A DNA stretch of 64,000 bases from Enterobacter pseudoroggenkampii (GTDB lineage Bacteria; Pseudomonadota; Gammaproteobacteria; Enterobacterales; Enterobacteriaceae). The notes beneath the pieces were generated by a model. The model worked only from the letters and a program-made list of their open reading frames with translations. It ran no database searches and was not told where the DNA came from. The stretch lies in assembly GCF_026420145.1 (NCBI RefSeq), contig NZ_JAPMLV010000002.1, positions 372,001 to 436,000 of the forward strand. Reading direction: 5' to 3'. This document shows positions 44,835 through 62,936 of this stretch, piece by piece. Position 1 is the stretch's first letter; each line of letters opens with the position of its first letter. The translations under genes were made by a program, and so were the position numbers.

Positions 44835-45683
44835 ATGATCGCGATTACCGGCGCTACAGGCCAGCTTGGCCATCTCGTTATCGAACAGCTGTTGAAAACC
44901 GTACCGGCCAGCCAGATTGTGGCCATCGTACGTAACCCGGCGAAAGCGCAAGCCTTAAGCCAGCAGGGGATAGTGGTGCGTCAGGCAGACTACACGGATG
45001 AAGCCGCCTTCGCCGCCGCGCTGAGCGGCGTGGATAAACTGCTGCTGATCTCTTCCAGTGAAGTCGGCCAGCGCGCAACCCAGCACCAGAACGTGATTAA
45101 CGCCGCCAAAACGGCAGGAGTGAAATTTATCGCCTACACCAGCCTGCTGCACGCGGACAACTCACCGCTCGGTCTGCACGTTGAACACGTTGCCACTGAA
45201 AACGCGCTGGCGGCGTCCGGCATTCCTTATGCCCTGCTGCGCAACGGCTGGTATACCGAAAACTATCTGGCGAGCGCGCCGCCTGCGCTGGAACACGGCG
45301 TGTTTATTGGTGCGGCAGGCGAAGGCAAAATTGCCTCTGCCACCCGCGCAGACTATGCCGCGGCGGCAGCCAAAGTGATTGCTGAAGAGGGCCACGCGGG
45401 CAAGGTGTATGAACTGGCGGGCGACCACGGCTGGACGCTGAGCGAACTGGCGGCTGAACTCAGCAAACAGAGCGGGAAGCCGGTCACCTATCAGAATCTC
45501 AGTGAAGCGGATTTTGCCGCCGCGCTGAAAAGCGTCGGCCTGCCTGCCGGGCTGGCAGATATGCTGGCGGACTCCGATGTCGGTGCCTCCAAAGGGGGAC
45601 TTTTTGACGATAGCCATACGCTGAGCAAACTGATCGGGCGCGCAACGACGCCGCTGGCGCAGAGCATCAAAGCCATTCTGTAA
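44835..45683 (+). CDS. qorB: NAD(P)H:quinone oxidoreductase QorB (YtfG)
   Basis: A 282-residue NmrA-like short-chain dehydrogenase fold protein. The NADPH-binding motif GATGQLG is at residues 6-12 and the family sequence LLRNGWYTENY is present. E. coli QorB reduces quinones with NADPH. The ATG at 44835 follows gaaggag. It is divergent from its probable regulator ytfH. The accessory biosynthetic region begins about 100 bp downstream. Confidence 0.95.
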   Translation: MIAITGATGQLGHLVIEQLLKTVPASQIVAIVRNPAKAQALSQQGIVVRQADYTDEAAFAAALSGVDKLLLISSSEVGQRATQHQNVINAAKTAGVKFIAYTSLLHADNSPLGLHVEHVATENALAASGIPYALLRNGWYTENYLASAPPALEHGVFIGAAGEGKIASATRADYAAAAAKVIAEEGHAGKVYELAGDHGWTLSELAAELSKQSGKPVTYQNLSEADFAAALKSVGLPAGLADMLADSDVGASKGGLFDDSHTLSKLIGRATTPLAQSIKAIL

Positions 45684-45779
45684 CGGCCTGACCGTTTTCT
45701 CCCGCGGCCGGGTGATTCCCCTTACCCGGCACGCACTTATATGGCATTCTGTCCTCCCGACAGATACCGAAACCCTGCT

Positions 45780-46493
45780 ATGTTTACTGCGATAAACACG
45801 GATTCCGCGCCCCCTTTTATTCACTCCGTTGAGATGGGCAACGTCGCCCCTTTCCCCGCACTGCGCTACTGCCTGGTCTCATTCACCGTGCACGAGTACC
45901 ATGACGGGCTCTTTGATAAATGGGGCATCCCTTTTCCCGTTCCGCTCAACGGCGCCGTGGTAAAACGCCGGGCGGAGTATCTTGCGGCGCGTTACGCCGC
46001 GCAGCGGGTGCTGAGATCCTTCGGCTGTGACGCTACGCCGGGCAACGCGCCGGATCGTTCTCCGGTGTGGCCTTCCGGCTGGCGGGGAAGCCTGTCACAT
46101 TCTCATGAGTGGGCGCTGGCGGTCATCGCGCCAGAGGCGTCTGGCCTGACGCCGGGCGTCGACATTGAGTTTTTTGCCCCCGGGATGATGCAGCGGACAG
46201 CGCACCTGTTTACCACACCGCAGGAGCGGAAATGTCTTGCCGCCAGCCAGATCGACGAGGCCAGCGCGCTACTCATCACCTTTTCCGCGAAAGAGAGTCT
46301 CTATAAGGCGCTCTATCCTGAGGTTGGCCGCGCCCTCGATTTTGACGCGGCCCGCGTGTGCCACATCGCGCCTGAACAGCAGAGGATCACCCTGGAGCTG
46401 ACCCAGACGCTGTCACCTCAACGCGTAAAGGGCAGCCGGATCCAGGGCTATTATCAGCTCTCAGGCGACAGGGTTATCACGCTCATTGCCTGA
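45780..46493 (+). CDS. Sfp/EntD-type 4'-phosphopantetheinyl transferase
   Basis: A 237-residue enzyme that would attach the phosphopantetheine arm of CoA to the carrier domains of the neighbouring synthase. The family motifs are intact: GVDIEFF (Mg ligands D128 and E130) and FSAKESLYKA (K171, E172, K176), with SLSHSHEWA upstream. It is not entD, which sits elsewhere in enterobacteria with the fep genes. It lies 96 bp after qorB; a gccgggt/acccggc hairpin without T-run (45707-45730) lies between. Its last 33 bp overlap the end of the alpha/beta hydrolase gene on the opposite strand. Confidence 0.9.
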   Translation: MFTAINTDSAPPFIHSVEMGNVAPFPALRYCLVSFTVHEYHDGLFDKWGIPFPVPLNGAVVKRRAEYLAARYAAQRVLRSFGCDATPGNAPDRSPVWPSGWRGSLSHSHEWALAVIAPEASGLTPGVDIEFFAPGMMQRTAHLFTTPQERKCLAASQIDEASALLITFSAKESLYKALYPEVGRALDFDAARVCHIAPEQQRITLELTQTLSPQRVKGSRIQGYYQLSGDRVITLIA

Positions 46494-47408
46494 CGCCAGC
46501 AAGGGAGCCAGATACGCCATCACCATGTCGATGCCCTCCCCCGGACGGCGCAGCGGATTATGTCCCTGACCGTGGGTCTCTGCCAGCCTCGCGCCAGGCC
46601 AGGCGTTGACCAGGCATTCCGCTTCGACCCGCAATACGATGTCATCGCTGCTGTCGTGAATAACCAGAGCCGGCTGATCGACCTGCTGCAGCCCCTCATA
46701 GGCGTTAAAGCGCTGCCAGACCGCCTCGCCAATACCAAAGTACCCTTCAATATACCGTCGTAGCCTTTGCTGCTGACGACCCGGGAGATTCAGGATCGCG
46801 GCATATTTGGTGACCAGCCCGCTAAAGTGCGTCGGCGCCCCCACGATAACCAGCGCGCGGGTCCGCAATCCCGCTTTTACCGCATTAATAACGGATAACC
46901 CGCCAAACGAGTGCGCCACAATCGCGTCAAAACCCCCTTCCTGCTGCGCCAGCTGTTCAATGATTTCAATGAACTCGACGATGCTGCTCTGACGTCCAGC
47001 CGCGTTGCCATGTGCGGGGGCGTCAAACCCGATGACCTGAAAGCCCTTTTCGACCAGCGTCTTGATCAGCCTGCCAAAGTGGGAAGCCCTCGACTCCCAG
47101 CCGTGGGCTAACAGCACGGTAGGTCCCTCGCTGCCCCAGCGGTACACCACCGCATGTTTACCATTACTCAAAGGGAGAGACTCAATGCGGCTCGCCAGCG
47201 CCGTCATCTCTTTATCGCCTGCACGCGTCGGCACCCGGCGCGGCGTAAAAAACCGATTGCCCAGCCAGTCGGCGGTCGCCCCCGGCACAACCCGATCCAT
47301 CAGGCGGATACCGGCCTTCACGCATGACACCATCGGCGAGCGCAGGTAGGCGGGGCCACGATACTGCTGGTAGGCTTGCTCAATTAGTCGATCAAATTGC
47401 TCACTCAT
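46461..47408 (-). CDS. Alpha/beta hydrolase
   Basis: A 315-residue hydrolase with an oxyanion loop LLAHGWESRASHF, nucleophile elbow VAHSFGGLS (Ser167), a late aspartate (VIHDSSDDIV) and a catalytic histidine (HGQGHNPLRR). No signal peptide. It is the last gene of the eight-gene biosynthetic operon and overlaps the AlkB-type gene by 8 bp. It may act as an external thioesterase or deacylase for the megasynthase, which has no thioesterase domain; that role is inferred from context. Confidence 0.85.
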   Translation of the reverse strand: MSEQFDRLIEQAYQQYRGPAYLRSPMVSCVKAGIRLMDRVVPGATADWLGNRFFTPRRVPTRAGDKEMTALASRIESLPLSNGKHAVVYRWGSEGPTVLLAHGWESRASHFGRLIKTLVEKGFQVIGFDAPAHGNAAGRQSSIVEFIEIIEQLAQQEGGFDAIVAHSFGGLSVINAVKAGLRTRALVIVGAPTHFSGLVTKYAAILNLPGRQQQRLRRYIEGYFGIGEAVWQRFNAYEGLQQVDQPALVIHDSSDDIVLRVEAECLVNAWPGARLAETHGQGHNPLRRPGEGIDMVMAYLAPLLASGNERDNPVA

Positions 47409-48570
47409 GGGACTCTCCGGAAACACAGGGAACAGTGGACTTAACCGCGGATGATTCAGACTGACGGATCAGGGCACGCTCTGCGTCACTGGCAACGTGT
47501 TCGTCCCAGTACGCGAGTTTTGCTTCCATTCGCTTAAACCACAGCGGCGGGATCAGCGCGTAAAAAATATGGGCGACATACCCTTTTTCGATTCCCACCG
47601 CGTAGCTGTGCGCCTGCAAATTCCAGTATTCACGACGCGGATGGGTGTGATGATCGGAGTGGCGCGTCAGGTTCAGCAGACCGGCCGACGAGGCCCGGTT
47701 ATTGCAATCCCAGCTGTGTCGCGGCTCCACGCGCGTGCCGGGCAGACGAACCAGACCGTAGTGCTGGATATAATTCACCGTTTCAAACAGGAACTTAGAG
47801 ACCAGCATGGTCACCAGGCACGCCAGCGCGCCCCGGACGCCCGCCGCCGTAAAGCAGACTGCCACGATCAGCAGGCTCATCAGCACCCCGCTCACCACCC
47901 GGTTCACCAGCATGGCGCCGCCTCGGTTCTGAAGCGACAGCCGCTGCGCTTCCACCTGCCAGGATTCAACATACTGCGACAGAGAAGAACGGATAAAGAA
48001 GCGATACACACTCTCCCCACGACGCGCCGTCGCGCCGTCCGCCGGGGTCGCCACGTTAGGATGATGCGAATAGACGTGTGAAATCGAAAACTGCGCATCG
48101 CCGACCAGCGCCAGAAGCCAGCGCCCGACCATCATCGCCGCCAGGCTGTGGGTTTTGTGGATAAGCTCATGGGCCACCACGGTATTGGTGCTCATGGTAT
48201 AGCCGGTGGAGACCGCCGCAAGCAGCAGCTCAGGCTGGGTAAGGTGATGCAGCGCCATGATGTTGTGACCGGTCAGGGCGGAAAGCCATGCGCCAAACCC
48301 GAGCAGATCGCCCGGCGCGGCCTGCCAGATAAGGGCGAACAACGCCAGCAGCGCGGCTGGGAGCTGTAAATACGGGATGATTTCCAGCAGCGCCGGCAGG
48401 CGGTAGTGGCGATCGGCGGTGTCGTGCGTGGTTGCGTTATCGAAAAGGAGATAGCTCAGCGTCACGCAGAGGATAGAGACGACGATCCACACGCCGCCGA
48501 GCACGGTCGTTAGCGCGGTTAGGGGTAAAAAAACGCAGGGGACAAGGGCAAATCTCAGGTAACTCAACAT
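47401..48570 (-). CDS. AlkB/XylM-type membrane diiron hydroxylase
   Basis: A 389-residue integral membrane protein with the histidine clusters of alkane 1-monooxygenases: HELIHK (H134, H138), HVYSHH (H165, H169, H170), NYIQHYGL (H270), and RHSDHHTHP (H304, H307, H308, H310). Hydrophobic helices separate them. Such enzymes use O2 and electrons from a ferredoxin or rubredoxin to hydroxylate terminal alkyl carbons. The upstream overlapping gene encodes exactly such an electron donor. The likely target is the alkyl chain of the megasynthase product or precursor. Confidence 0.88.
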   Translation of the reverse strand: MLSYLRFALVPCVFLPLTALTTVLGGVWIVVSILCVTLSYLLFDNATTHDTADRHYRLPALLEIIPYLQLPAALLALFALIWQAAPGDLLGFGAWLSALTGHNIMALHHLTQPELLLAAVSTGYTMSTNTVVAHELIHKTHSLAAMMVGRWLLALVGDAQFSISHVYSHHPNVATPADGATARRGESVYRFFIRSSLSQYVESWQVEAQRLSLQNRGGAMLVNRVVSGVLMSLLIVAVCFTAAGVRGALACLVTMLVSKFLFETVNYIQHYGLVRLPGTRVEPRHSWDCNNRASSAGLLNLTRHSDHHTHPRREYWNLQAHSYAVGIEKGYVAHIFYALIPPLWFKRMEAKLAYWDEHVASDAERALIRQSESSAVKSTVPCVSGESHE

Positions 48571-49619
48571 ACGGGCTCCTTATTGTTATGACTGTTTTTT
48601 GCACCGACCGGCGGGGAGAAGCAGTCCATTTCAAGCAGGTGGCTCATCACCCCTCCGGCGAGCAGCCTCTGCCGACACGCCTGCGCCAGCGCGGGATTGC
48701 CGCAAATCACGACGCGCCATTCGGCTACCGCCGTCCGGCGGGGATAGAGGGCGCGCCAGTCGTCCAGCCAGCAGGTAATGCGTCCTGCCAGCTCCATCGC
48801 CTGAACCTCACGCTCCCGGGATAACGCGTGCAGATAGTGAAAACCGGGATAGTGCTGACGCAGACGCTGCAGTTCCTGCAGGTCGAATGTGTCATGCCGC
48901 CTGCGAACCGCGTGGATCAGCATGACCTCGCGGTGGGGATGACGCGCCAGCGCGGCGCGGACCAGACCCAGCGTCGTTCCGAGTCCCGATCCACTGGCGA
49001 TAGCCAGCAGAGGACCGCTACCGTCATCCCGCTGGCCGAACTGCCCCCGGCAGTCTGAGAGCCATACCTTCAGTCCAGTCGCCTGTTCATCACACAGCAG
49101 TGGGGATAGCCGCCCCTCTTCACGGCGCGTGATATCCAGAACAATCTCTCGCCCCTGGCTCGGCCAGCTCACGGAGAAGCTCCGGATATCCTTATCCTTT
49201 TCGAGACCGACCTGAACGTATTGTCCTGGCTGAAAGGGCAACGCCTGCTCCGCCAGCAGCGTCACGCGCCATACCGTGGATGAGAGCGCAACAGCCCGCT
49301 TAACTCGCGCAGGCGTCCAGGACGCGGATGCCGCGGCCAGCGTTAAATCCGATTCTGGCAGGCACTGGCATGCCAGCACGTGGCCAGCGGCAATCTCTTC
49401 CTGGCTGAGCAAATAGCTCAGGTCGACAAGCGAACGCACCTTGCCGCTCGTTACCCGGCAAAGACAGGATTTACACGAGCCGACCTGGCAGTTATACGGC
49501 AGGGAAACGCCGGCGTTGAGCGCGCTTTCGAGAAGCGTATGGCCGGACGGCAGGGGGAATTCATGTCCCTCAAGCGTCCCCTGAAAATGACCGCGGCGGG
49601 AAAACCATCTCTTCAGCAT
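48564..49619 (-). CDS. 2Fe-2S ferredoxin fused to FAD/NAD(P)H reductase (XylA/FNR type)
   Basis: A 351-residue electron-transfer protein. An N-terminal plant-type ferredoxin domain (about 1-95) has the cluster ligands C44, C49, C52 and C84 (CxxxxCxxC...C). It is followed by an FAD-binding domain (DIRSFSVSW, the RxYS-like motif) and an NAD(P)-binding domain (IASGSGLGTTLG, late VICGNPALAQ). It resembles the reductase of xylene and toluene side-chain monooxygenases. The ATG at 49619 gives a clean ferredoxin start; an upstream extension of 12 codons is unlikely. It overlaps the hydroxylase gene by 7 bp and should be its reductase. Confidence 0.88.
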   Translation of the reverse strand: MLKRWFSRRGHFQGTLEGHEFPLPSGHTLLESALNAGVSLPYNCQVGSCKSCLCRVTSGKVRSLVDLSYLLSQEEIAAGHVLACQCLPESDLTLAAASASWTPARVKRAVALSSTVWRVTLLAEQALPFQPGQYVQVGLEKDKDIRSFSVSWPSQGREIVLDITRREEGRLSPLLCDEQATGLKVWLSDCRGQFGQRDDGSGPLLAIASGSGLGTTLGLVRAALARHPHREVMLIHAVRRRHDTFDLQELQRLRQHYPGFHYLHALSREREVQAMELAGRITCWLDDWRALYPRRTAVAEWRVVICGNPALAQACRQRLLAGGVMSHLLEMDCFSPPVGAKNSHNNKEPVC

Positions 49620-49620
49620 C

Positions 49621-50637
49621 TTATTGCTCCCCGCACAGCAGCAGCCCGTCGTCAAAGACGCTGCCCATCATCACTTTTCCGCCCATGGGCGCGGCAACGC
49701 TGACTCCCGCCAGCGACGCACCGTGGCTTTGATAGAAAATAGTGGCCTGACTGATTTCACCCTGTGCACCGGTTGTCAGCCGCCACACCATGGACGGTGA
49801 ACGCGCCTGGGCATCTTTCTGATAGGCGGCCAGCTTCAGAAGCTGCGGGTGCGCCGCCACCAGCATTCCCTGCCCGTCCGGCAGGATATTGTCGACGCCA
49901 TGCAGACCGCTGAAGCGCCCCAGCAGGACGGGCGCAGCCTCATTCGGCTGCCACGCCCAGCTGCTCACCGCGCCGCGGGTGGTTTCCGCCACGTACAGAC
50001 GCCCCAATTGTCGGTTGTAGTAAATGCCGTTCGCAAAATGCAGGTCATCGATCAGGGTATGCAGCCCCGCCTCGTCTGCCAGCAGGACGCTGGAGAGCGG
50101 CAGTCGCAGATAGTCCTCCACGCGTCCCGCGAAGCCCGTCCACCGGTGGTCCCGCGTCAGCAGCCAGCGGGTTTTATCAATCACGCTGATATCATTGATG
50201 TTGTTTCCGACCGCGCGCGACAGGGCGGGCTGATACTCAAGACGCATCTGCGCGCGATTAAAGCGAAACACATCAATGCTGTCCTCCTGGGGACGGTGGT
50301 TCACCACGTAGATCCACGTCTCGCCCTCCTGCTGCCAGACATCGATACCGTGCGGGAAAAAGGCATCCGGATAGTCACCGGCTAATCGCTGCGGCCTGTC
50401 GCTGCCGTTGAGATAATAGAGCGCCCCGGGCGCGCTGCCGTGTCGGTTGAGGCTGCTGGCTATTGCCCCGCCATCCGATAAGGGCGCGATATCCTCCGCG
50501 CCCTCAATGCCGGTGATTTTTTGGCACTGTTCACCGCCGCGCTCCTGCACCTGATAAAACAGTCCGGCATCGATCAGCAGATTAACCACGAACGCCAGCA
50601 CGGCGCCTGCGAGGACGATAATCGTCAGCTTTTTCAT
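49621..50637 (-). CDS. Paraoxonase/arylesterase-like beta-propeller protein, membrane anchored
   Basis: A 338-residue protein with an N-terminal membrane anchor or uncleaved signal (IIVLAGAVLAFVVNLLIDAG) and propeller blades resembling the PON/SMP-30 superfamily. Segments such as FFPHGIDVW, NINDISVIDK and FANGIYYNRQ carry the calcium-binding asparagine/aspartate pattern of paraoxonases. These enzymes hydrolyse lactones and esters, often of lipids. It begins with a 4-bp overlap (ATGA) with the megasynthase stop. Possible roles are lactone hydrolysis, product release or self-protection in the periplasm; none is shown. Confidence 0.75.
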   Translation of the reverse strand: MKKLTIIVLAGAVLAFVVNLLIDAGLFYQVQERGGEQCQKITGIEGAEDIAPLSDGGAIASSLNRHGSAPGALYYLNGSDRPQRLAGDYPDAFFPHGIDVWQQEGETWIYVVNHRPQEDSIDVFRFNRAQMRLEYQPALSRAVGNNINDISVIDKTRWLLTRDHRWTGFAGRVEDYLRLPLSSVLLADEAGLHTLIDDLHFANGIYYNRQLGRLYVAETTRGAVSSWAWQPNEAAPVLLGRFSGLHGVDNILPDGQGMLVAAHPQLLKLAAYQKDAQARSPSMVWRLTTGAQGEISQATIFYQSHGASLAGVSVAAPMGGKVMMGSVFDDGLLLCGEQ

Positions 50638-53600
50638 GATGCGGCCAGTACCTCTGACGACGAGAATAATGCTTCGGCAGCCTCTTCGCCCTGCTCGGCC
50701 AGCACGGTTATCGCCTTCAGGAAGTGCTCCAGCAACGCACGGGCGCTCGCCTCGGTGAAATAGCGTATCTGGTAGTCCAGCTCGACGGACAGCCCCTCTT
50801 TCGTCTCGAGAATGTTAACCATCAGCGGGAATTCGACGGCGCCGATCGGGAGGAGCGACAGGCTGGCCTCCCACTGCCGCAGCTCTGCCAGCGGAGCATG
50901 CGGCTCGACGTTAAAGGTCGCCAGCAGCGGAAGCGGCGCATCCTGACCGTGGAAGCAGCGTGACGGCAGGGCGGGCTCGTCGCGCTGCGCGAGGATACCG
51001 TCATGGATTGCCCTGGCGACATCAGATAACGACGCACAGGCGGCGCTGTCGATACACAGCGGCAACAGCCGGACGCACTGGCCGACAAGCGCATCGCCCT
51101 GCCCGAAATCCCGCCCGGCATCCGGCACGCCGACCGGCACCGGGGAATGACCGACCGCCTTCTCAAGCGTCAGGGTAAAGAGCGCATTCAGCATCGCGAA
51201 GCGGGTCACCCGCAGCCCAGCGGAGGCTTTGCGCAGCTGCGCGGTCAGGCCCGGATACGACAAGCGCTGTACCAGCCGCTGCCCCTGATACGTCCGGGAA
51301 GGTGCCAGCACGGTAAGGACGTCTGGCGTTGCCCGGCGGGCAGGAAGCGCCGCAAGACGCGCAGGTAGCGCTGCCTCGCTGACGATGTTCTGCGCACGGA
51401 TAGCCTGCAGATAGCTTGCCGCAGCCGCCAGGTCAGGGCGTTTACCCGACGCCAGGGCATCGTAAAGATGCAGCAGCTCGCGCAGCATCACCATGAACGA
51501 CCAGCCGTCCGCCACCGAATGATGTGCCGCGATGGCGAGCGTGGTTTTCCCCTCATGGCGGACCAGAAGCAGTCGGGCCAGCGGCGCGGCGGTCAGGTCA
51601 AAGGGACGCGCGGCAAACTCAGCGAGACAGGCGGCAGGCGCCGCGTATTCCTCGCTGATATCGACGGTGGGCGCCAGGGCCACCTGAAGTTCGCCTGCGT
51701 CAGTGAACTGCATACGCAGCGCGTCATGGCGCTCGCACAGCAGTTGCCAGGCGGCAAGCATGATCTCGCTGTCTACGTTGCGCGGCGTTTCAATGACGCC
51801 GCCGATCGTCCCGGCCAACCGCCCGCTTTCATCCCGCGCGGCCAGCTGCAGAAAACGCTGCTGGCTGTCTGCAACGGCATAGCGCGTGTCGGGGCGCAAT
51901 CCGGCCTGCCCAAAGAAGCCGTCCACGCGCATGGCGTTAACGCTCTCTTTTACCGCCGCAATAAAGCGGTCGATATCCTCGTCCGCGTGTGCGACCGAAA
52001 CAAAGCAGTTACGCCCTTCCCAGATGAAAATGCCGCGCAGCATCAGGTGGTGGAAGAGGATGTCGTAGTTGCCGTTGAATTTGAAACGGAACAGGCTGCC
52101 GGCAGAGACGATCTCAATCGGCGTACCGGTTGCAGAGAACCAGGTATTTAGCGACATCGTCAGACGCGCGGTTTTTTGGTTGATGTCGTCATACAGCGCC
52201 GGATGGGCTTTGATGTACTCCAGCACGGCTTTGCTTGCCGCCATGGTCAGCGGATGCTTGGAGAAGGTACCGGCAAAGAAGATCAGTTCAGCCTGCGGCC
52301 AGGAGTCATCGCCATACTGCCAGAATCCGCCGTCGATACTGTCCATAAAGCGGCTGGAGCCTGCAATCACGCCGATCGGCATACCGCCGCCGACGATCTT
52401 ACCGTAGGAGGCGATATCCGCCTGAACGCCGTAATACGCCTGCGCGCCGCCGGCCGCCAGACGGAAACCGGTGATCACCTCGTCAAACATCAGCGCAATA
52501 TTGTGGGTCGTCGTCAGCTCGCGCAGGGTATGCAGGTATTCGCGCGGCTGATGGTCGGGATAACGGCTCTGCACCGGTTCGACGATCACCACCGCCAGCT
52601 CGGCGGCATAGCGGGCGATAAGCGCCAGGCTCTCTTCGCTGCCGTAATCGAGCACCAGCAGGTCGTCCACCAGCGATGGCGGCGTACCGGCGGCAATCGG
52701 CGTGGCGCGCTCGGGGGTTTCTCCGCCCTGCTGCCGCCCCAGAATGCCGTCAAACACGCCGTGATATGAGCCGCTAAACAGCGCGACTTTATTTTTCCCC
52801 GTCACGGCGCGCGCCAGGCGCACGGCGCTCATTACCGCTTCAGAGCCGGAGTTACAAAATGCCACCCGCTGCTGGCCGGTCAGCTCGCTGATAAGCGTTG
52901 CCACCTCGCCCGCCAGCGCGCTTTGCGGCCCAATCTGCATGCCCTGCGCCAGCTGGTCGGCAACGGCCTGCTGCACGCAGTCCGGTGCATGCCCCAGCAG
53001 GTTGGCGCCAAACCCCATCGTAAAATCAATATACTCGTTGCCATCGACGTCCCAGATGCGCGATCCCTGAGAGCGTTCCCCCACTAAGGGGTAAAGCATC
53101 TCTTTGGTGGATAAACGAAAGCCCGCAGAGGCCCGGTTATCCGCCAGCACGGCGCGGTACTGCTGGGCATTGCGTTTCGACCCGCCTGTTTTATCGACAA
53201 ACCGCTGGGTGAGCTGCGCCAGATGCTGGTCGCGCTCGGCGCCCAGGGAGAGCTTTTTCGTCTCTTTTTTAAACCAGCTGCTGTGCGCGCTGGCCTTCAC
53301 CGGTGCGGCCGGGGTGGCGACAGGCGCTGGCGCGATGACATCCGGCATCGTTGGCGCGACGGGCATCGGGAGAGTCTGCGCCGTGCCGTTGAGCAGCGTG
53401 AGCTGCTTGGACATAAGCTCCAGCTGGCGGGCAATCAGATCCTGAACCGCGCCAGGCACCGGCTTGCTGGTTTCCTGCATGGCCACGGCAGGCTGTGCCG
53501 CCTGCCCGGCGGTTGCCGGGGTGCTGAGCGGAGCCGCCGCCGCCGCTGGCTGCGCGTGCTCCACCACATAACCGATCACCGCGTCCAGCGTATTGAGCTC

Positions 53601-56600: not shown

Positions 56601-58373
56601 TATCCCGGCAATCAGCGCCGCCAGCGCGGGAGGGGTTTCCCCCGCGTGTTCAAGCGGTTTTGACGCGTCCTGGCGGCTACGCCAGGCCACGTCCAGGCTC
56701 CCCTGCTGATACATCATCTTCGCGCGGGTGCGCTGTAATTTCCCGCTGGTGGTTCGGGGGATTGCCCTTCGTTCGACAAGGAGCAGTTCATCCAGCGTAA
56801 TGCCGTGACGCTCCGCCACCGCCGCGGTCACGGACGGTGCCAGCGTCGCCATATCGAGATCATTTTTATGGCGCTTCATCAGCTCAAGCAGCGCTACCGG
56901 GCGCTCGTCTTCACTGGCAAACACGCAGACCGTCGCTTCCGCCAGCGCGGGAGCGGACTGGCGGATCGTCTCTTCAATATCCGTCGGGTAGTGGTTCTGG
57001 CCGTTGATAATCAGCAGCTCTTTGAGCCGTCCGGTGACGTACAAATGGCCGAACTGGAGAAAACCCATATCGCCGCTGCGCAGCCACGGGTACGGATCGC
57101 CTGCCAGAGACGCCCGGAAGGTTTCGCGCGTGGCGGCATCATTGGCCCAGTATCCGGCGGCAACGCTCGGACCACGCAGCCATATTTCTCCGCTCTCACC
57201 GTCAGCAAGCGGCTGATGGTGGTCAGGATCGACAATACGCACCTCGGTATCAGTCAGAGCCTGCCCGCAGCTCACCGCACCGGCCTCGTCAGACACGCGG
57301 AGCCCTTGCCCTTTGTCCATTCCGGTGACGATGAGCGTGGTTTCCGCCATGCCGTAGCAGGGCAGGAACGCGCCGGGCCGAAACCCTGCGGGCGCAAAGT
57401 GTTCGCTAAACTGCTTGAGCGTGGCGGGCCGAATCGGCTCTGCGCCACAGAAAGCCACGTCCCAGCGCGAAAGATCCAGTGCCTCAACCTGCTCTCGGCC
57501 AATCTTACGCACGCACAGATCGTAGGCGAAATTAGGGCCGCCGGAGGTTGTGGCCTGATAGTCAGAGACCTGTTTGAGCCAGTTAAGGGGATTTTTCATT
57601 AACATCATGGGCGACATCACCCGACAGGGGAAGGCGCCGAACACGGGCTGCAGTAGCCCGCCAATAAGCCCCATATCATGAAAATGCGGCAGCCAGATCG
57701 TGCCCCGGCTTTCGCTGTGGTGGCCGAAAAAGCGGTGAATAGCATGTGAGTTAGCCCACAGGTTGCCATGGGTTACCATCACGCCTTTCGGGGAGCCCGT
57801 CGAACCCGAGGTGTACTGTAAAAAAGCCAGATCGTTGTCTGCCACCGGAACGGGGTGAAATGCCCCGGAAAAGGTGCGTTCAAGATGATGCAGACGATAA
57901 CCCGCAGGAAGCGCGGACGTGTCGGGTTTGTCGAAGGTAAAAATAAGCGGGGATAACGGAAGTGATAGCTGGCCTAGCGTTTCTGCCCCCCTGGCTGTCG
58001 TAACAATACAGTCCGTTTGCGCATTACGTAATACGCCAGCAAAACGCTCCCACGCGCTTCCTGATGATTTTGCGGGCATCGGAACCGGAACCGCCACCCT
58101 GCCGGCGTAAAGACAGCCAAAAAAAGCGCCAATAAAATCTTCACCATCCGGATAAAGCAATATGACCCTGTCGCCCCGCTGCCCGTACTGCATTAAAGCC
58201 TCTGCAAGCGACGCGGCGCGCTGGTGTAGCTGGTCATAGCTTTGGCTGTGAATTTCACTGGCGCTGCGGACGAATTCAAATGCCGTCTGAGTAGTCTGTT
58301 GAACAGCAAGTTCGGGCAAAAGCTGGTTGAAGGAATGATATCCCCTGTTAAACAACTGATGAGACGGCATCAT
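50634..58373 (-). CDS. Hybrid PKS/NRPS megasynthase: FAAL-ACP-KS-AT-ACP-aminotransferase-C
   Basis: A 2579-residue multidomain enzyme. Domains, by residue: fatty-acyl-AMP ligase 1-555 (QYTSGSTGSPKG at 186-197, K545 in TSGKLQR); ACP1 about 580-655 (candidate Ser616, in LSSL rather than DSL); ketosynthase 668-1080 (C826, H961, H1000); acyltransferase 1170-1460 (S1262 in GHSLGE, AFHS at 1363-1366, malonyl type); ACP2 1530-1605 (S1566 in GADSL); Ala/Pro linker 1606-1700; GSAM-type aminotransferase 1710-2150 (K1992 in GKIVGGG); condensation domain 2160-2560 (HHSVADG, H2285). This order matches the start of the mycosubtilin/iturin synthases, but no adenylation, further PCP or thioesterase domain follows. 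Predicted role: activate a fatty acid, extend it by one malonyl unit, transaminate the beta-keto group and release or condense the beta-amino acyl product. Confidence 0.93.
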   Translation of the reverse strand: MMPSHQLFNRGYHSFNQLLPELAVQQTTQTAFEFVRSASEIHSQSYDQLHQRAASLAEALMQYGQRGDRVILLYPDGEDFIGAFFGCLYAGRVAVPVPMPAKSSGSAWERFAGVLRNAQTDCIVTTARGAETLGQLSLPLSPLIFTFDKPDTSALPAGYRLHHLERTFSGAFHPVPVADNDLAFLQYTSGSTGSPKGVMVTHGNLWANSHAIHRFFGHHSESRGTIWLPHFHDMGLIGGLLQPVFGAFPCRVMSPMMLMKNPLNWLKQVSDYQATTSGGPNFAYDLCVRKIGREQVEALDLSRWDVAFCGAEPIRPATLKQFSEHFAPAGFRPGAFLPCYGMAETTLIVTGMDKGQGLRVSDEAGAVSCGQALTDTEVRIVDPDHHQPLADGESGEIWLRGPSVAAGYWANDAATRETFRASLAGDPYPWLRSGDMGFLQFGHLYVTGRLKELLIINGQNHYPTDIEETIRQSAPALAEATVCVFASEDERPVALLELMKRHKNDLDMATLAPSVTAAVAERHGITLDELLLVERRAIPRTTSGKLQRTRAKMMYQQGSLDVAWRSRQDASKPLEHAGETPPALAALIAGIIGNTLNTTIGESRWDDAFTGFGLSSLQAVGVIGELEQRLGRELSPALIYDYPTINQLAVALREPAAVRPVSAAVAESAIAVIGIGVELPGHSGVEALWSLLQQGHSTTGEIPAQRWRTSSLDGFNRKGSFFDEVDAFDAGYFGISPREAVYIDPQHRLLLETVQQALTDAGLKASSLRGSDTAVYVGISASDYALACGDNVSAYSGLGNAHSIAANRISYLYDLKGPSVAVDTACSSSLVAIEGAMQSLRAGRSSLAIAGGVNLALTPHLQKVFTDAQMLAPDGRCKTFDARADGYVRGEGCGVVVLKPLSQALADGDRVYATLVASAVNQDGRSNGITAPNGPSQQAVIRQAMADAGVDSDSIDYIEAHGTGTALGDLIEYQALEAVFADRKKTAPVQVGSIKTNIGHLEAAAGVLGVVKTSLMLHYRQYVPHLNFQHKNPHIAAISRHVEVSGAQPASWHADGDVRYAGVSSFGFGGTNGHVILRSAPAVEKRQEPAAPHGLLLIGSHDEGAFPLQREAVKKGLSTCQESDIATWCRLVNTRYDAARYRGVAYGADRAQLADSLAQLTACKAGKAQPQVWLFPGQGTQQIGMGAELYHHLPHYRAQFDALATTIRQRYQIDITQALFARDDSWQRCARTCQLSLFACSYALAQSVMQFGPRPAAVMGHSLGEYCAAVIAGYLSLDDGLAMVHQRALLMSALTQEGAMAVVFSGEAEVRQLISPWAGDIDIAAFNTPTLTTIAGSQTAIDACLQAISAQGGHARKIKTASAFHSSMMDPILGAWREWLVNNVTFTRGTIPFYSNLNGEACDQTDADYWTRQIRQPVRFLQGVQNVLAQGEFTFIDLSADSSLGKFVTATDRRHRVLAAGDRRHEYKSLLTLLGTLWQQGHDINWSGLYHATTREALNLPAIQFCRKRYWLADETPAQTPSAKEDAMSNQHHLAAEIKAIIAGFLEADPATLDDELPFLEMGADSLVLLDAINTIKDRYGVAIPVRALFEELNTLDAVIGYVVEHAQPAAAAAPLSTPATAGQAAQPAVAMQETSKPVPGAVQDLIARQLELMSKQLTLLNGTAQTLPMPVAPTMPDVIAPAPVATPAAPVKASAHSSWFKKETKKLSLGAERDQHLAQLTQRFVDKTGGSKRNAQQYRAVLADNRASAGFRLSTKEMLYPLVGERSQGSRIWDVDGNEYIDFTMGFGANLLGHAPDCVQQAVADQLAQGMQIGPQSALAGEVATLISELTGQQRVAFCNSGSEAVMSAVRLARAVTGKNKVALFSGSYHGVFDGILGRQQGGETPERATPIAAGTPPSLVDDLLVLDYGSEESLALIARYAAELAVVIVEPVQSRYPDHQPREYLHTLRELTTTHNIALMFDEVITGFRLAAGGAQAYYGVQADIASYGKIVGGGMPIGVIAGSSRFMDSIDGGFWQYGDDSWPQAELIFFAGTFSKHPLTMAASKAVLEYIKAHPALYDDINQKTARLTMSLNTWFSATGTPIEIVSAGSLFRFKFNGNYDILFHHLMLRGIFIWEGRNCFVSVAHADEDIDRFIAAVKESVNAMRVDGFFGQAGLRPDTRYAVADSQQRFLQLAARDESGRLAGTIGGVIETPRNVDSEIMLAAWQLLCERHDALRMQFTDAGELQVALAPTVDISEEYAAPAACLAEFAARPFDLTAAPLARLLLVRHEGKTTLAIAAHHSVADGWSFMVMLRELLHLYDALASGKRPDLAAAASYLQAIRAQNIVSEAALPARLAALPARRATPDVLTVLAPSRTYQGQRLVQRLSYPGLTAQLRKASAGLRVTRFAMLNALFTLTLEKAVGHSPVPVGVPDAGRDFGQGDALVGQCVRLLPLCIDSAACASLSDVARAIHDGILAQRDEPALPSRCFHGQDAPLPLLATFNVEPHAPLAELRQWEASLSLLPIGAVEFPLMVNILETKEGLSVELDYQIRYFTEASARALLEHFLKAITVLAEQGEEAAEALFSSSEVLAAS

Positions 58374-58413
58374 AATTCGCTCTATATTTTCAAATGTAAT
58401 GAGGGTGGGAAGA

Positions 58414-59241
58414 TTATTTTCCGGCGCGGCCAGCCAGCAGATCGTTACAGAAGTCGTTCCAGACCTTCAGCCACAGATCGACACGCTGTTCCATCTCGGC
58501 GTAGCGGTCTTCCGTCAGCGCCTGGCAGAACAGGATCCATGCATCTTCGGAGTGACCATCTTCAATGGACTCTCCCGTTTCGCTTTCTACATGGATGCTG
58601 TGATAGCCCTTCGTGACGTCTATATCCGTTGCTTTATCAACACCTTTTGCCCACGGCGTGGCAAAGTCATGGAAGACGGTCTCGGCCACGGCCAGCAAAC
58701 CCACCAGCTGGGTATAGTCGCCATAGGCATTCTCGAAGGTTGCGCGGCAGGCCAGAGAGCTGGACATCGGCAGCCAGGATTTCACCTCGTGCTCCGTCAT
58801 CCCCAGCTGCTGGATGGTCGTAAAGAACTGCACGTAGTGCGCCAGCGCGGGCTGGCCGTTGTAATTGCCCTCGGCGTCTTCGCCAGGGTGGAAGCCCAGC
58901 TCATCCAGCAGGTTGATTTGCAGCAGAAAACGGGCCGCCATTTTCGCCTGCGCGCCCAGCGGCGCTTCCAGCTGTTTCGCCGCGCTTAACGCTTCAATAA
59001 CGGCATCGGTAAAGACTTGCGCAAACGCGTGATAAAATTCCAGATGGAATACGCGCATCTGTTGAATATCAACTTCGCCGCTGTTCATTTTTGCCAAAAT
59101 AGGGCTGCGCATCAGCGGATGGGATTCAATCCGGTCAATAAGCCTGTTGGCAAAGGCGCGGTTTTCGGTATAAACGTGCTTATCTACGGTCGCGACAATA
59201 GCGTCCCGACCCAGCTGGCGGGTATTCAGTAACGTTTTCAT
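58414..59241 (-). CDS. Haem-oxygenase-like putative diiron oxidase/oxygenase
   Basis: A 275-residue all-helical protein of the iron-containing redox family that shares the haem-oxygenase/TenA fold (UndA, BesC and SznF relatives). Candidate metal ligands occur in the order expected: E114 (LLDELG), H135 (LAHYVQ), E187 (AVAETV), then H217 and the D228/H230 pair (HVESETGESIEDGHS). Relatives use O2 for oxidative decarboxylation, desaturation or N-oxygenation of amino or fatty acids. It lies 40 bp upstream of the megasynthase gene. Acting on a beta-amino fatty acid or its precursor is an attractive inference; no direct evidence. Confidence 0.75.
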   Translation of the reverse strand: MKTLLNTRQLGRDAIVATVDKHVYTENRAFANRLIDRIESHPLMRSPILAKMNSGEVDIQQMRVFHLEFYHAFAQVFTDAVIEALSAAKQLEAPLGAQAKMAARFLLQINLLDELGFHPGEDAEGNYNGQPALAHYVQFFTTIQQLGMTEHEVKSWLPMSSSLACRATFENAYGDYTQLVGLLAVAETVFHDFATPWAKGVDKATDIDVTKGYHSIHVESETGESIEDGHSEDAWILFCQALTEDRYAEMEQRVDLWLKVWNDFCNDLLAGRAGK

Positions 59242-59266
59242 TTTTATTTCTCAGGTAGGTGATAGT

Positions 59267-59677
59267 TTACAGGGCAGAAACCCTGCCAATTGCCATTACA
59301 ACTAACGCATACATTCCACAGCTAAACGGTATAACCTGCACATATTTAAATGGCAGATAAAAACACGATGCAATCAGCAGAACCGGAATACCCACCGAAA
59401 GTATCATCATGCAAATAACGGCATAATATTTATAGGTATAAGACACGGCGAGGTCATCAATACACATGCCATAAAGCATGGATATTAACGGCAGCATAAT
59501 AAAGGCAATATGTGCCAGCCTTAACATTCTGCGATTTAAATCGGTATAGTTTTCATGTCCTTTGGGTGCGCGAAACGGTCCCTTAAAAGCGTACATCCCC
59601 ATTAACCCACCCATCATTATGCCGACGACAATACCGCTCCAGCCAAAGGCAATCAGTATTGCACTGAGATTAGCCAC
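59267..59677 (-). CDS. Small integral membrane protein of the biosynthetic operon
   Basis: A 136-residue protein with four predicted membrane helices (about residues 6-28, 53-71, 81-103 and 110-132). The GTG at 59677 has aggag eight bases upstream and is preferred to the ATG 19 codons earlier, which would place a cysteine- and proline-containing stretch before the first helix. It is AT-rich compared with the megasynthase gene. It has a glycine-rich first helix (GWSGIVVGIMMGGLMGMYAF). No family recognised. Export, immunity or membrane tethering are possible from context. Confidence 0.65.
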   Translation of the reverse strand: MANLSAILIAFGWSGIVVGIMMGGLMGMYAFKGPFRAPKGHENYTDLNRRMLRLAHIAFIMLPLISMLYGMCIDDLAVSYTYKYYAVICMMILSVGIPVLLIASCFYLPFKYVQVIPFSCGMYALVVMAIGRVSAL

Positions 59678-59768
59678 TTTCTTTCTCCTGTTTAGTGGTG
59701 CACAAAGGTAAGGCGCCTGAGAAAATACAAGCACCTTTATTTATTAAAAATAAAATCAAATATAACGA

Positions 59769-61667
59769 TTAAAAATCCGGGTATTCTTTATCCGTCGCGT
59801 ATGTAATCGGTTTTTCAAATCCAGGAATGGTGATGCCATTCATATCAATCTTAATATCTTCCTCATTTATCCCCTGCTGGCCAAACAGATAAATGACATT
59901 GAGTTCACCCTGCGAAGCCGCCTCATCATACGCGTTAGCCTGACGTCGCACCTGGCGGTTACGCTGCTGATACTCCGCAAACACCGCTTCCCCATAGCGT
60001 TTGCGCAACCATTGATGGGTAAGCTTTGGCGAGTAAACCACCCCCGTGGCATTATTACCGCCAAAGCCTTTTGAATTTATAAAGGCAATCTGCCCCTGGC
60101 CTTCCTCTAATTTGCAGTCCTGAACAGGTATGGTTAAGCGTGCGTTATTCACCTGTGGCGCAATGTGCGACACGCTTTTAATTCCTGGCAAAATACCATA
60201 GCGGAAGACGCCGAGGCAGCTGATGAGCTGGTCGCCGCTGGCGGGCCCCAGGGAGTGACCAAGATACGATTTCACTGCCGTCACCGGCCAGTCGCGAATC
60301 GAAAAGGCTTGCGCAACGCGGTCAAAAATATCCGCCTCGGAGACGCAATTCTTCGGCGTGCTTGAACCGTGCGCCTGAATAAACGATCCCTTCTGCACCG
60401 TCTCTATCCCCGCCATCGATACCGCAGAGGCTACCGCTTTCGCCATGGTGATGTAGTTCCCCGGCCCCGGTGACGCGATAGAACGCTTAAAGCCGTCAGC
60501 GTTGATGAAGACATTTCCCACCGAACCGTGGATCTCTGCCCCAAGCTGCAGCGCCAGCTCGTCGTCCATTAACACGACGTACTGGCTGGATTCTGCGATC
60601 ACAAAACCGCAGCTGTTGCCAAACGGGCGGCTGCTGTTGCGCCAGTCGGCCGTATCCGTTTCATCAATATGCTTAAGCTTGCTCTCCGTTGCCAGGGCGC
60701 CCATGGCATCGAATCCTTCAATCACCTCTGAGGTGACCGGCGCTTCGGCGCTGCCCACAACGGCAACGCGAATGCGCCCCGCTTTAATATCTTCAACTGC
60801 CGCATTCAGGTTATACAGAAACGTGGCGCATGCCCCCAGCGTGGCGCTGGTATGACCGACGCTACCCAGCACATACGCATTGAGGAAATCGGCGCACATG
60901 CTGTTCAGGCCCAGCGGACACTGTTTGGCGCTGACGCGATGGCCTTTCAGGCGCGACTGGAGCATACCGCCAAAGCCATAATCGTCGAGCTGTCCCATGA
61001 TATTGCCCGAATAGACTCCGAGCTGATCCGGCGTGATGTTGGCCTGTATCTCTCGCCACGGGATCCCCAGGGCGTTGATGGCGTCTGACGCTCCGACAAT
61101 CGCCATTTGTAGCGCCCGCGGATGGAACTGCGAACTGTAATGGTCACCCGGGCGGAATCCCTGCGGCAGCAAACCTGCAGCCTGAACCTCCGTGCGCAAC
61201 AATGCCTCAATTTTACAATCCATCTCTCCCTTAACGGTAATACGCACACGCTGATCCGCTAATTCTTCAACGTGCCATCCCGCCGGTAAGGGTTGAGGTA
61301 ATTGTCTGGAAGATATATTAAAACTGAATCCCTCTTCGCCTGAAACCATATTCAATTTTGCATGGCTGACGATAGCATCGACATCAAAATAGTCGCGCGT
61401 AATTTTTCGGATAAGGGTTCCCTCAAGCGCCTCGTCTTTTATCTTCGCGGCAGCCTGAGCAGGTGTAAATCTTTTACCGGAAATGTCGCAATATCCGCCC
61501 TCATCATATTTAAGCACGCCCATCAGAATGGCTAACGATAATAACGTCGCTTGCCTTTCCTCTTCCGATAATGACTCAATAATCATTCGACGAAATGCAT
61601 GATGTGAAGAACTACGACCAGCTGGACCATAGCCGCCAAAAGCCGTTATTACGGGTAATTTCGCCAT
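59769..61667 (-). CDS. FabY-like beta-ketoacyl-ACP synthase
   Basis: A 632-residue ketosynthase closely resembling Pseudomonas aeruginosa FabY (PA5174) in length and along its whole sequence as remembered: VITAFGGYGPAGRSS at the N-terminus, FGGMLQSRLKGHRVSAKQ, and FINSKGFGGNNATGVV. The catalytic triad is present: C280 (TLGACATF), H433 (IQAHGSS) and H471 (YLGHSLG). FabY starts fatty-acid synthesis by condensing acetyl-CoA with malonyl-ACP. Enterobacteria normally rely on FabH, so this is not a housekeeping gene here. As first gene of the operon it probably supplies or shapes the fatty acyl starter for the megasynthase. Confidence 0.85.
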   Translation of the reverse strand: MAKLPVITAFGGYGPAGRSSSHHAFRRMIIESLSEEERQATLLSLAILMGVLKYDEGGYCDISGKRFTPAQAAAKIKDEALEGTLIRKITRDYFDVDAIVSHAKLNMVSGEEGFSFNISSRQLPQPLPAGWHVEELADQRVRITVKGEMDCKIEALLRTEVQAAGLLPQGFRPGDHYSSQFHPRALQMAIVGASDAINALGIPWREIQANITPDQLGVYSGNIMGQLDDYGFGGMLQSRLKGHRVSAKQCPLGLNSMCADFLNAYVLGSVGHTSATLGACATFLYNLNAAVEDIKAGRIRVAVVGSAEAPVTSEVIEGFDAMGALATESKLKHIDETDTADWRNSSRPFGNSCGFVIAESSQYVVLMDDELALQLGAEIHGSVGNVFINADGFKRSIASPGPGNYITMAKAVASAVSMAGIETVQKGSFIQAHGSSTPKNCVSEADIFDRVAQAFSIRDWPVTAVKSYLGHSLGPASGDQLISCLGVFRYGILPGIKSVSHIAPQVNNARLTIPVQDCKLEEGQGQIAFINSKGFGGNNATGVVYSPKLTHQWLRKRYGEAVFAEYQQRNRQVRRQANAYDEAASQGELNVIYLFGQQGINEEDIKIDMNGITIPGFEKPITYATDKEYPDF

Positions 61668-61767
61668 AATTCATCCTGTAGTGGTCGTGGATTTATTTTG
61701 TTAAGTAAGTGCGATAATTTCAGATATTAGTTTACAAATTACCAACAAAAGCTAATATGAAAATCCA

Positions 61768-61790
61768 GCCAAAATGCTGACTTTTTTGGC
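61768..61790. promoter_or_regulatory. Inverted repeat between the biosynthetic operon and its divergent regulator
   Basis: gccaaaa-N9-ttttggc, extendable to ccagccaaaa/ttttggccagg with one base out of register. It lies 100 bp upstream of the FabY-like gene and 53 bp before the regulator start, in an AT-rich 176-bp divergent region. A candidate operator for the GlxA-type regulator. Confidence 0.5.
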
Positions 61791-61843
61791 CAGGACAACG
61801 ATGAGCTACCAAAAATAATAGTCAAAACAGGTATTAATCAAAA

Positions 61844-62887
61844 ATGACAAATACACAAATAGGATTTGTGTTATGTGAACGCATGCTAAGTTCCGGTCTC
61901 AGTCTTCCGATTGAAATGTGGAAAGCCGCAGCCAGTAGCTATTTAGCCGAGCAAAAAACAACATCCCACGCAGACACGCACAAACCGGAGACGTCTTCAT
62001 TCAGGCTCTGTCGTCCGGAGAATATACTGAAAGTTCATACTATTGGCATAAATAACGAGCCCATCCTGACGCACAGTGGCTTCAGCATTACCGCCGATAC
62101 TACCCTTGCCGCAGACAGGCACTATGACGTTATCTATCTTCCCGCCCTGTGGCGCAATCCTCGCGCGGTGGTCAGACAACAGCCTGAACTCCTGGCATGG
62201 CTTAGCGAACAGGCGGCTCGAGGGACCCGCATCGCGGCCGTCGGAACGGGCTGCTGTTTCCTGGCGGAGTCGGGATTGCTCAACGGGAAACCCGCCACCA
62301 CTCACTGGCACTACTTCAAACAGTTCTCGCGCGACTACCCCAACGTAAAATTACAAACCAAACATTTTCTCACGCAGGCCGATAATATTTACTGTGCCGC
62401 CAGCGTCAAAGCCCTCTCAGATCTGACCATCCATTTCATCGAAACGATATACGGGAAACGTGTAGCCACCCATACCCAGCGGACCTTTTTCCATGAAATT
62501 CGAAGTCAGTTCGATCGCCAGTGTTACAGTGAAGAAAACAAACCGCATCCGGATGAAGATATTGTTCAAATTCAAATCTGGATAAAAGCCAACTGCGCCT
62601 CAGATATATCCATGCAAAATCTTGCCGATATGGCTGGCATGAGTTTGCGCAACTTCAACCGTCGCTTTAAAAATGCCACCGACATGTCCCCCCTGCAGTA
62701 TTTATTAACCGCCAGAATTGAATCCGCCATGACGATGCTGCAATCCACCAATTTGAGCATTCAGGAGATCGCCAATGCGGTTGGATATCAGGATATTGCG
62801 CACTTTAACCGCCAGTTTAAGCATAAAACCACGGTGTCACCGGGGGATTATCGTAAGACGGTCCGGGCAAAGATGTTTAGTGCATAA
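61844..62887 (+). CDS. GlxA-family AraC-type regulator with DJ-1/PfpI domain
   Basis: A 347-residue regulator. The N-terminal half (about 5-200) is a DJ-1/PfpI-type domain with the nucleophile-elbow segment VGTGCCFLAESG (C137/C138) expected of this fold. The C-terminal half (about 240-340) is an AraC double HTH (MQNLADMAGMSLRNFNRRFK and IQEIANAVGYQDIAHFNRQFK). The start lacks a clear Shine-Dalgarno and is preceded by an AT-rich region. It is divergent from the eight-gene operon and is its most likely regulator, sensing an unknown small molecule through the DJ-1 domain. Confidence 0.88.
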   Translation: MTNTQIGFVLCERMLSSGLSLPIEMWKAAASSYLAEQKTTSHADTHKPETSSFRLCRPENILKVHTIGINNEPILTHSGFSITADTTLAADRHYDVIYLPALWRNPRAVVRQQPELLAWLSEQAARGTRIAAVGTGCCFLAESGLLNGKPATTHWHYFKQFSRDYPNVKLQTKHFLTQADNIYCAASVKALSDLTIHFIETIYGKRVATHTQRTFFHEIRSQFDRQCYSEENKPHPDEDIVQIQIWIKANCASDISMQNLADMAGMSLRNFNRRFKNATDMSPLQYLLTARIESAMTMLQSTNLSIQEIANAVGYQDIAHFNRQFKHKTTVSPGDYRKTVRAKMFSA

Positions 62888-62936
62888 ACTCCGGTCATCT
62901 CTGATAATAAAATAGATGACCGCGAGGAGGCTCACC

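What the first reader, a model, noticed from the sequence alone, without database searches (positions are those of the whole stretch)
45780..62887. Undescribed lipid-type biosynthetic cluster inserted between qorB and ytfF
Seen: eight minus-strand genes with overlaps of 4-8 bp or short gaps (FabY-like KS, small membrane protein, putative diiron enzyme, FAAL-ACP-KS-AT-ACP-AMT-C megasynthase, paraoxonase-like protein, ferredoxin reductase, AlkB-type hydroxylase, alpha/beta hydrolase), a divergent GlxA-type regulator and a convergent phosphopantetheinyl transferase. Known: FAAL-KS-AT-AMT modules make beta-amino fatty acids in iturin-type pathways, and AlkB enzymes hydroxylate alkyl chains. Inferred: the product is a beta-amino fatty acid derivative, perhaps chain-hydroxylated. 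I recognise no characterised cluster with this gene set.
Basis: partly seen in the sequence, partly recalled or inferred. Interest (0 to 1): 0.95.

Follow-up and report, generated by a model that had tools for sequence, protein, structure and literature searches.

The report
Aminolipid cluster with outliving immunity gene
Some Enterobacter and Serratia genomes carry a gene cluster predicted to make an unknown amino-bearing lipid, and its fatty-acid starter enzyme is also found intact in relatives that lack the rest of the cluster, so it likely protects cells against that lipid rather than helping to build it.

Summary
In detail: eight minus-strand genes, a divergent GlxA-type regulator and a convergent PPTase, with intact synthase motifs, lying between qorB and an AraC gene beside ytfF; 19 of 30 same-genus loci have that site empty. 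The core (TMP, diiron enzyme, synthase, paraoxonase) recurs in Serratia, Photorhabdus and Enterobacillus. Eight of 120 listed synthase homologues share a contig length with a diiron-enzyme homologue; all eight end at the condensation domain, against 0 of 93 that continue. The beta-amino-lipid product is inferred. New here: the FabY-like ketosynthase dissociates both ways. It is intact where the synthase is gone from the locus in 5 Enterobacter genomes and one Serratia with operon scars, and missing from 3 of 10 synthase genomes. Those three also lack AlkB, which the other seven have. FabH is intact in 16 of 16. I read the ketosynthase as a likely FabH-bypass self-resistance enzyme, kept as orphan immunity. 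No product, activity or resistance has been shown; the listings of 10 literature searches showed no description of this cluster.

The parts
44787..45683 (+). qorB-like gene, left flank of the insertion
   Evidence: directly beside AraC in 19 of 30 same-genus loci (empty site)
45741..46493 (+). Sfp/EntD-type phosphopantetheinyl transferase, likely activates the carrier proteins
   Evidence: among the clusters read, adjacent homologues only in Enterobacter and Enterobacillus
46461..47426 (-). alpha/beta hydrolase, accessory tailoring gene
   Evidence: among the clusters read, only in those that also have AlkB
47401..48570 (-). AlkB-type membrane alkane hydroxylase, accessory
   Evidence: HELIHK, HVYSHH, NYIQHYG, RHSDHH histidine motifs; genome-wide in 7 of 16 genomes, exactly the full-cluster ones
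48564..49655 (-). 2Fe-2S ferredoxin/NAD reductase, likely electron donor to AlkB (and perhaps the diiron enzyme)
   Evidence: 58-aa remnant in Photorhabdus
49621..50637 (-). paraoxonase-like membrane-anchored beta-propeller, core gene
   Evidence: PHGID, NINDI, FANG(I/L), VDNI motifs conserved in 9 of 9
50634..58373 (-). megasynthase FAAL-ACP-KS-AT-ACP-AMT-C, core gene
58414..59241 (-). heme-oxygenase-like diiron oxidase (HDO), core gene
59267..59677 (-). 136-aa four-helix membrane protein (TMP), core gene
59769..61667 (-). FabY-like ketosynthase (KSY), proposed FabH-bypass self-resistance enzyme
   Evidence: identity, triad; dissociation, selection
61768..61792 (.). inverted repeat TGGCCAAAA-N9-TTTTGGC between GlxA and KSY, candidate operator
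   Evidence: once in the window; in 37 of 37 loci that hold it, it lies 52-54 bp before GlxA; the two GlxA loci without it are both genome G778
61844..62887 (+). GlxA/FtrA-type AraC regulator (DJ-1/PfpI + HTH)
   Evidence: kept in all 5 solo-KSY Enterobacter genomes and in Serratia G813
62916..63761 (+). AraC-type regulator, right flank (not part of the cluster)
   Evidence: orthologue in 60 of 60 same-genus genomes

Best explanation
The cluster is predicted to make a membrane-associated beta-amino lipid, and the FabY-like ketosynthase at its head is likely not a building step but a spare fatty-acid starter enzyme that would let the cell bypass FabH when its own AlkB-tailored product inhibits it. 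Predicted steps of synthesis: FAAL adenylates a free fatty acid and loads ACP1; KS-AT-ACP2 adds one malonyl unit; as there is no KR, the beta-ketone stays and AMT turns it into a beta-amine; the terminal C domain, with no A-PCP or TE after it, releases the chain onto a small free amine or alcohol. Four core genes (TMP, HDO, synthase, PON) would make the base product: HDO oxidises chain or amine, and the anchored paraoxonase acts on the released lipid outside the cytoplasm. FNR, AlkB and the hydrolase are an optional tailoring set. Among the ten synthase genomes examined KSY occurs with that set and not without it, and it survives, beside its GlxA regulator, at loci where the synthase is gone: orphan immunity. 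Shown: gene content, motifs, predicted fold of HDO, presence and loss patterns, low dN/dS. Inferred: every reaction, the product, the FabH target and the resistance role.
For: Synthase complete and conserved. KSY is a full-length FabY with the Cys-His-His triad. KSY without synthase at the locus: 5 of 61 Enterobacter-genus genomes, with HDO and AlkB absent genome-wide, and Serratia G813, where TMP and HDO scars show that the direction was loss; within Enterobacter the tree forces at least two changes of the label. Solo KSY intact 6 of 6; pairwise dN/dS 0.06-0.14. Synthase without KSY: G741, G743 (KSY remnant with a stop), G744; the same three lack AlkB genome-wide, the other seven synthase genomes have both. 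FabH intact in 16 of 16, so FabY adds to it and does not replace it. FabY is described as a FabH-type condensing enzyme (passage, PMC8666670); PtmP3 in the platensimycin cluster is a precedent for target-replacement self-resistance by a condensing enzyme (passage, PMC6332302).
Against: No product, target or resistance phenotype was observed. Three synthase genomes have no FabY, so the base product does not require it. The six pairs of the four solo genomes with one junction have about twice the mean dN/dS of six full-cluster pairs (0.119 against 0.066), which fits some relaxation. The KSY-AlkB association rests on 10 genomes with as few as two separate changes. Four solo Enterobacter genomes share one junction, so they may be one event, time since loss is unknown, and outside G813 the direction (loss of the synthase, not its later insertion) is inferred. 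The synthase itself was not searched genome-wide in the solo genomes, only HDO and AlkB. FabY could instead supply special fatty acids or be kept for an unrelated metabolic benefit. The link to HDO outside Enterobacterales rests on equal contig lengths, not on contigs read: 6 of 15 such HDO hits on contigs of 12 kb or more matched one of the 120 listed synthases, and that list is the top of 2,833 hits (my count from the listings).
Confidence: 0.45

Rival explanations
1. KSY is biosynthetic: it starts a dedicated fatty acid (or feeds malonyl-derived short chains) that FAAL loads; genomes lacking it use FabH products, and solo copies are relics.
For: KSY is the first gene of the presumed operon, 34 bp before TMP's longest ORF, and co-occurs with the AlkB set in all 7 full-cluster genomes examined, so it might set the chain length that AlkB needs.
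Against: Intact in 6 genomes without synthase at the locus; dN/dS 0.06-0.14 among solo copies; absent where the synthase is 71-72% identical and its full-length ORF is intact.
Confidence: 0.25
2. GlxA-KSY is an independent metabolic module (inducible second start of fatty-acid synthesis under stress) that merely neighbours the lipid cluster, with no role in synthesis or immunity.
For: The GlxA-KSY pair and its inverted repeat stay together with or without the synthase.
Against: In a sample of 394 Enterobacterales genomes only 3 had a close copy, all same-genus full-cluster genomes; the other 38 hits were 44-50% identical. An independent module might be expected without cluster history in other genera; the sample holds few genomes per genus, so this is weak.
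Confidence: 0.2
3. The product is a lipopeptide: the terminal C domain hands the beta-amino acyl chain to an NRPS encoded elsewhere.
For: In iturin-type lines the C domain after AMT belongs to the next amino-acid module (recalled); some synthases that end after C have lipopeptide-like C domains (7 of the 27 terminal-C rows sit inside the 63-row clade).
Against: No A or PCP domain in the other nine cluster proteins; HDO-matched synthases end 0-35 residues after C, leaving little room for a docking domain; their C domains are separated from the 63-row clade by a 100/99 branch.
Confidence: 0.15

Closest known systems
Iturin/mycosubtilin and puwainaphycin beta-amino fatty acid modules
   Same: FAAL-ACP-KS-AT-ACP-AMT-C order (recalled for these lines) that makes a beta-amino fatty acyl chain; a record with bacillomycin BamA matches at 31.5% over 87% of the query
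   Different: Ends at C: no amino-acid modules, no TE; accompanied by HDO, paraoxonase, AlkB and FabY
FabY of Pseudomonas aeruginosa (PA5174, 4cw4)
   Same: Full-length homology with conserved triad
   Different: There it starts fatty-acid synthesis (title of Yuan 2012 seen in a reference list); here an extra copy linked to a biosynthetic cluster in hosts that keep an intact fabH
PtmP3/PtnP3 self-resistance in platensimycin/platencin clusters
   Same: A condensing enzyme of fatty-acid synthesis inside a biosynthetic cluster (passage of PMC6332302)
   Different: Enzyme differs (FabY-type here, a single enzyme replacing FabF and FabH there); resistance not shown here; solo copies persist where the synthase is gone
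Heme-oxygenase-like diiron oxidases (BesC, UndA, PolF, HrmI, CADD)
   Different: 12-20% identity; substrate unknown; a separate family that appears tied to AMT-C synthases
Nocuolin A (noc) cluster
   Same: FAAL, aminotransferase and oxygenase genes in a cyanobacterial lipid pathway (passages of PMC5333925)
   Different: 19-22 genes, two FAALs with ACPs, an A-KR-TE protein, dioxygenase-like genes; no FAAL-PKS-AMT-C fusion in the passages seen

Membership tests
Iturin-type beta-amino fatty acid lipopeptide synthetase | FAAL-ACP-KS-AT-ACP-AMT-C order with intact catalytic residues | tested here: met
Iturin-type beta-amino fatty acid lipopeptide synthetase | Downstream C-A-PCP modules and a TE that builds a peptide | tested here: not met
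   protein ends with C; no A/PCP domain in the other cluster proteins. So it is not filed as a lipopeptide synthetase
FabY ketosynthase family | Full-length homology to FabY including the N-terminal extension, and Cys-His-His triad | tested here: met
FabY ketosynthase family | Condenses acetyl-CoA with malonyl-ACP | not testable with these tools
   needs enzyme assay
Target-replacement self-resistance gene (PtmP3-like) | Extra copy of a housekeeping function, encoded in the cluster, with the normal copy elsewhere | tested here: met
   FabH intact in 16 of 16 relatives (the window's own genome is not held); KSY in the cluster
Target-replacement self-resistance gene (PtmP3-like) | Present in every producer | tested here: inconclusive
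   7 of 7 genomes with the AlkB set, 0 of 3 with the core only; which of them produce a toxic product is unknown
Target-replacement self-resistance gene (PtmP3-like) | Protects cells from the product | not testable with these tools
   product unknown
Heme-oxygenase-like diiron oxidase | HDO fold and conserved carboxylate/His ligand set | tested here: met
   (E114, H135, D228 in 34 of 34; E187 in 32 and Asp in 2; H217 and H230 in 32 of 34); assignment of these residues as ligands is inferred
AlkB alkane hydroxylase | Histidine boxes incl. NYxxHYG and HxxHH, homology to solved AlkB | tested here: met
   (box patterns recalled)
Serum paraoxonase family | PON1 calcium/catalytic residue motifs | tested here: met
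   PHGI, NDI, FANG(I/L), VDNI shared with 1v04; their roles in PON1 are recalled
Styrene oxide isomerase (for TMP) | Four-helix fold with heme-ligating His | tested here: inconclusive

The most novel reading that the evidence does not exclude
A new class of terminal-condensation-released beta-amino lipids, of which the AlkB-tailored form made by Enterobacter and Serratia blocks the FabH start of fatty-acid synthesis, with FabY as the first cluster-borne bypass and GlxA-FabY islets as orphan immunity in non-producers.
Probability: 0.35. Interest if true: 0.85.

Novelty: new variant of a known kind. Interest (0 to 1): 0.62.

Why it matters
If true, the gene pattern points both to an unknown natural product and to its likely target, the start of fatty-acid synthesis. 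It would add FabY to the short list of condensing enzymes used as self-resistance, give a genomic marker (solo GlxA-FabY) for strains exposed to the compound, and define a family of pathways (diiron oxidase plus FAAL-PKS-AMT synthase released by a terminal C domain) that appears to reach from Enterobacterales to cyanobacteria.

Tried and rejected
Nocuolin: read by passages, gene set differs. FAAL review PMC11837247: a term search found no mention of Serratia, Enterobacter or Photorhabdus. Defence system: PADLOC gave no match for the five proteins scanned. Plasmid-borne origin: no plasmid record resembles the synthase at 60% or more; the cluster region has no near match in the E. coli genomes. 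Lipopeptide synthetase membership: rejected for lack of A-PCP-TE. HDO by sequence: no PDB match by single sequence; its profile gives BesC at E 1e-3 only. Whether HDO has the extra carboxylate of N-oxygenating HDOs was not resolved (needs coordinates that were not available). TMP as a CorA transporter: 14 of 14 members match Pfam CorA, best E 3e-7, and 9 of 18 homologues carry a precomputed CorA label, but the window member lies below the curated cutoff (23.8 against 27 bits) and the match covers only about the last fifth of the profile, so it was not adopted, nor is it excluded; the TMP profile found nothing in PDB sequences. In the C-domain tree four rows (P0126, P0142, P0155, P0156) are likely not C domains but luciferase-like monooxygenase segments (Pfam lists); they form their own group and were left in the counts.

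Rows dropped: 33 of 120 C domains, all of the continuing kind, were left out of the tree for speed. 33 of 66 HDO hits (near-duplicates, fragments and others, chosen by hand) were not put in A1, and A2 drops one further row. 5 of 18 TMP hits were not put in A4. The synthase list is the best 120 of 2,833 hits, from a capped set of 7,988 candidates. S. fonticola, E. cloacae and Photorhabdus SF281, which have a synthase protein, were not examined for KSY or AlkB.
Full report

WHERE IT SITS. The window's own genome is not held; the nearest is G001, which shares a 96,962-base contig with Enterobacter asburiae TN152, so I call its genus Enterobacter. The AraC gene on the right flank has an orthologue in 60 of 60 same-genus genomes. 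Of the 30 loci returned, 19 have qorB directly beside it (empty site), 9 have GlxA and KSY there, one has GlxA only and one has neither. In the GlxA-only genome an IS1-like insertion has removed KSY together with one end of qorB and of GlxA (the IS name is recalled).

WHO ELSE HAS IT. Related clusters: E. asburiae TN152 (95% synthase identity), Serratia inhibens, S. plymuthica, Serratia PL17, S. microhaemolytica, Photorhabdus bodei, Enterobacillus tribolii (71-74%). The diiron enzyme is rare: 3 of 394 genomes of the order and 2 of 398 of the phylum in even samples; 4 of 61 in the Enterobacter genus, 3 of 30 intact plus one remnant in the Serratia genus, 1 of 12 in the Photorhabdus genus. In the ten clusters read besides the window, only TMP, HDO, synthase and paraoxonase are always present; KSY, FNR, AlkB, hydrolase, GlxA and PPTase come and go.

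A WIDER CLASS. HDO homologues at 43-60% identity occur in cyanobacteria and in metagenomes. Eight synthase homologues among the 120 listed have the same longest-contig length as an HDO homologue, six of them outside Enterobacterales. I read equal lengths as the same contig; the contigs were not read. All eight end within 35 residues of the C domain; of the 93 listed synthases that continue past C, none is so matched (Fisher p 2.6e-6, relatedness ignored). In a tree of 87 of the 120 C domains all eight fall in two starred clades (14 and 6 rows, every row terminal), apart from a 63-row clade (100/99) of 56 continuing and 7 terminal rows. In the 20 terminal-C synthases checked, every domain that is present carries its catalytic motif or a close variant. 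I infer a family of pathways in which a beta-aminoacyl chain is made and then released by the C domain itself.

THE FABY GENE BEHAVES UNLIKE THE REST. (i) Present without synthesis: of 9 Enterobacter-genus genomes with KSY among 61, four have the full cluster and five (G783, G757, G792, G756, G761) have GlxA-KSY between AraC and qorB with TMP to PPTase absent from the locus; HDO and AlkB are absent genome-wide in those five. Serratia G813 has intact GlxA (94%) and KSY (95%) followed by a 27-codon TMP scrap and HDO residues 1-121, with the rest deleted. This shows loss of synthesis with KSY kept. In Enterobacter the sister pair G754 (full) and G761 (solo), 100/99, makes the tree need at least two changes. 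(ii) All six solo KSY genes are intact, and pairwise dN/dS involving them is 0.06-0.14. Against this, the mean over the six pairs of the four solo genomes with one junction is 0.119, against 0.066 for the six pairs of four full-cluster copies (G754 and G761 excluded), so selection may be somewhat relaxed. (iii) Absent with synthesis: Photorhabdus G741, Enterobacillus G743 (a 63-residue KSY remnant with a stop) and S. microhaemolytica G744. These three also lack AlkB anywhere in the genome, whereas the other seven synthase genomes have both (Fisher p 0.008, relatedness ignored). The synthase tree needs at least two separate changes for this label. (iv) FabH is intact in all 16 genomes examined, so KSY is an addition.

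INTERPRETATION. A gene that is dispensable for a core pathway, tied to its AlkB-tailored version, and kept after the pathway is gone looks more like immunity than like a building step. FabY is described as a FabH-type condensing enzyme (passage in PMC8666670), and a condensing enzyme in the platensimycin cluster gives self-resistance by target replacement (passage in PMC6332302). The simplest model is that the AlkB-tailored beta-amino lipid inhibits FabH, that FabY bypasses it, and that GlxA, whose candidate operator is the conserved repeat TGGCCAAAA-N9-TTTTGGC 52-54 bp before it in 37 of 37 loci that hold the repeat, controls both. Two GlxA loci, both from the IS-damaged genome G778, lack it. 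Target, resistance and product are untested. Rivals are a biosynthetic KSY and an unrelated metabolic module.

NOVELTY. The listings of ten searches of open-access full texts showed no description of this cluster; four papers were looked into by passages. MIBiG and subscription papers were not searched. I rate it a new variant of a known kind: beta-amino acyl PKS chemistry and condensing-enzyme self-resistance are known; this combination, the terminal-C release and FabY as the candidate bypass are new to me.

Noticed in passing
L027:960-1823 and L028:5941-6798 (Acinetobacter plasmids): A 34-36% identical relative of the diiron enzyme lies near a TetR-type regulator gene, with no synthase among the annotated neighbours.
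   Followed up: no
L004:18851-19024 (Photorhabdus bodei): A 58-residue remnant of the ferredoxin reductase follows the paraoxonase gene, and the next 2 kb hold no ORF of 80 aa or more: the AlkB set was likely lost there.
   Followed up: partly
L067 (genome G778): An IS1-like insertion between qorB and GlxA removed KSY and the ends of both neighbours; the only one of 30 same-genus loci seen with GlxA but no KSY.
   Followed up: partly
Genomes G740, G742, G813 (Serratia): A second FabH-like gene with an open frame of 340-363 aa scores below the fabH cutoff; it may bear on FAS-start redundancy in these hosts.
   Followed up: no
window 59267-59677: The small membrane protein has its best fold match to styrene oxide isomerase, with an invariant His (H56), and a sub-cutoff CorA match; with the diiron enzyme it could form an epoxide-type or heme-dependent step.
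   Followed up: partly
L033 (Planktothrix agardhii plasmid): DISARM defence genes sit within 1 kb of a FAAL-started NRPS/PKS cluster.
   Followed up: no
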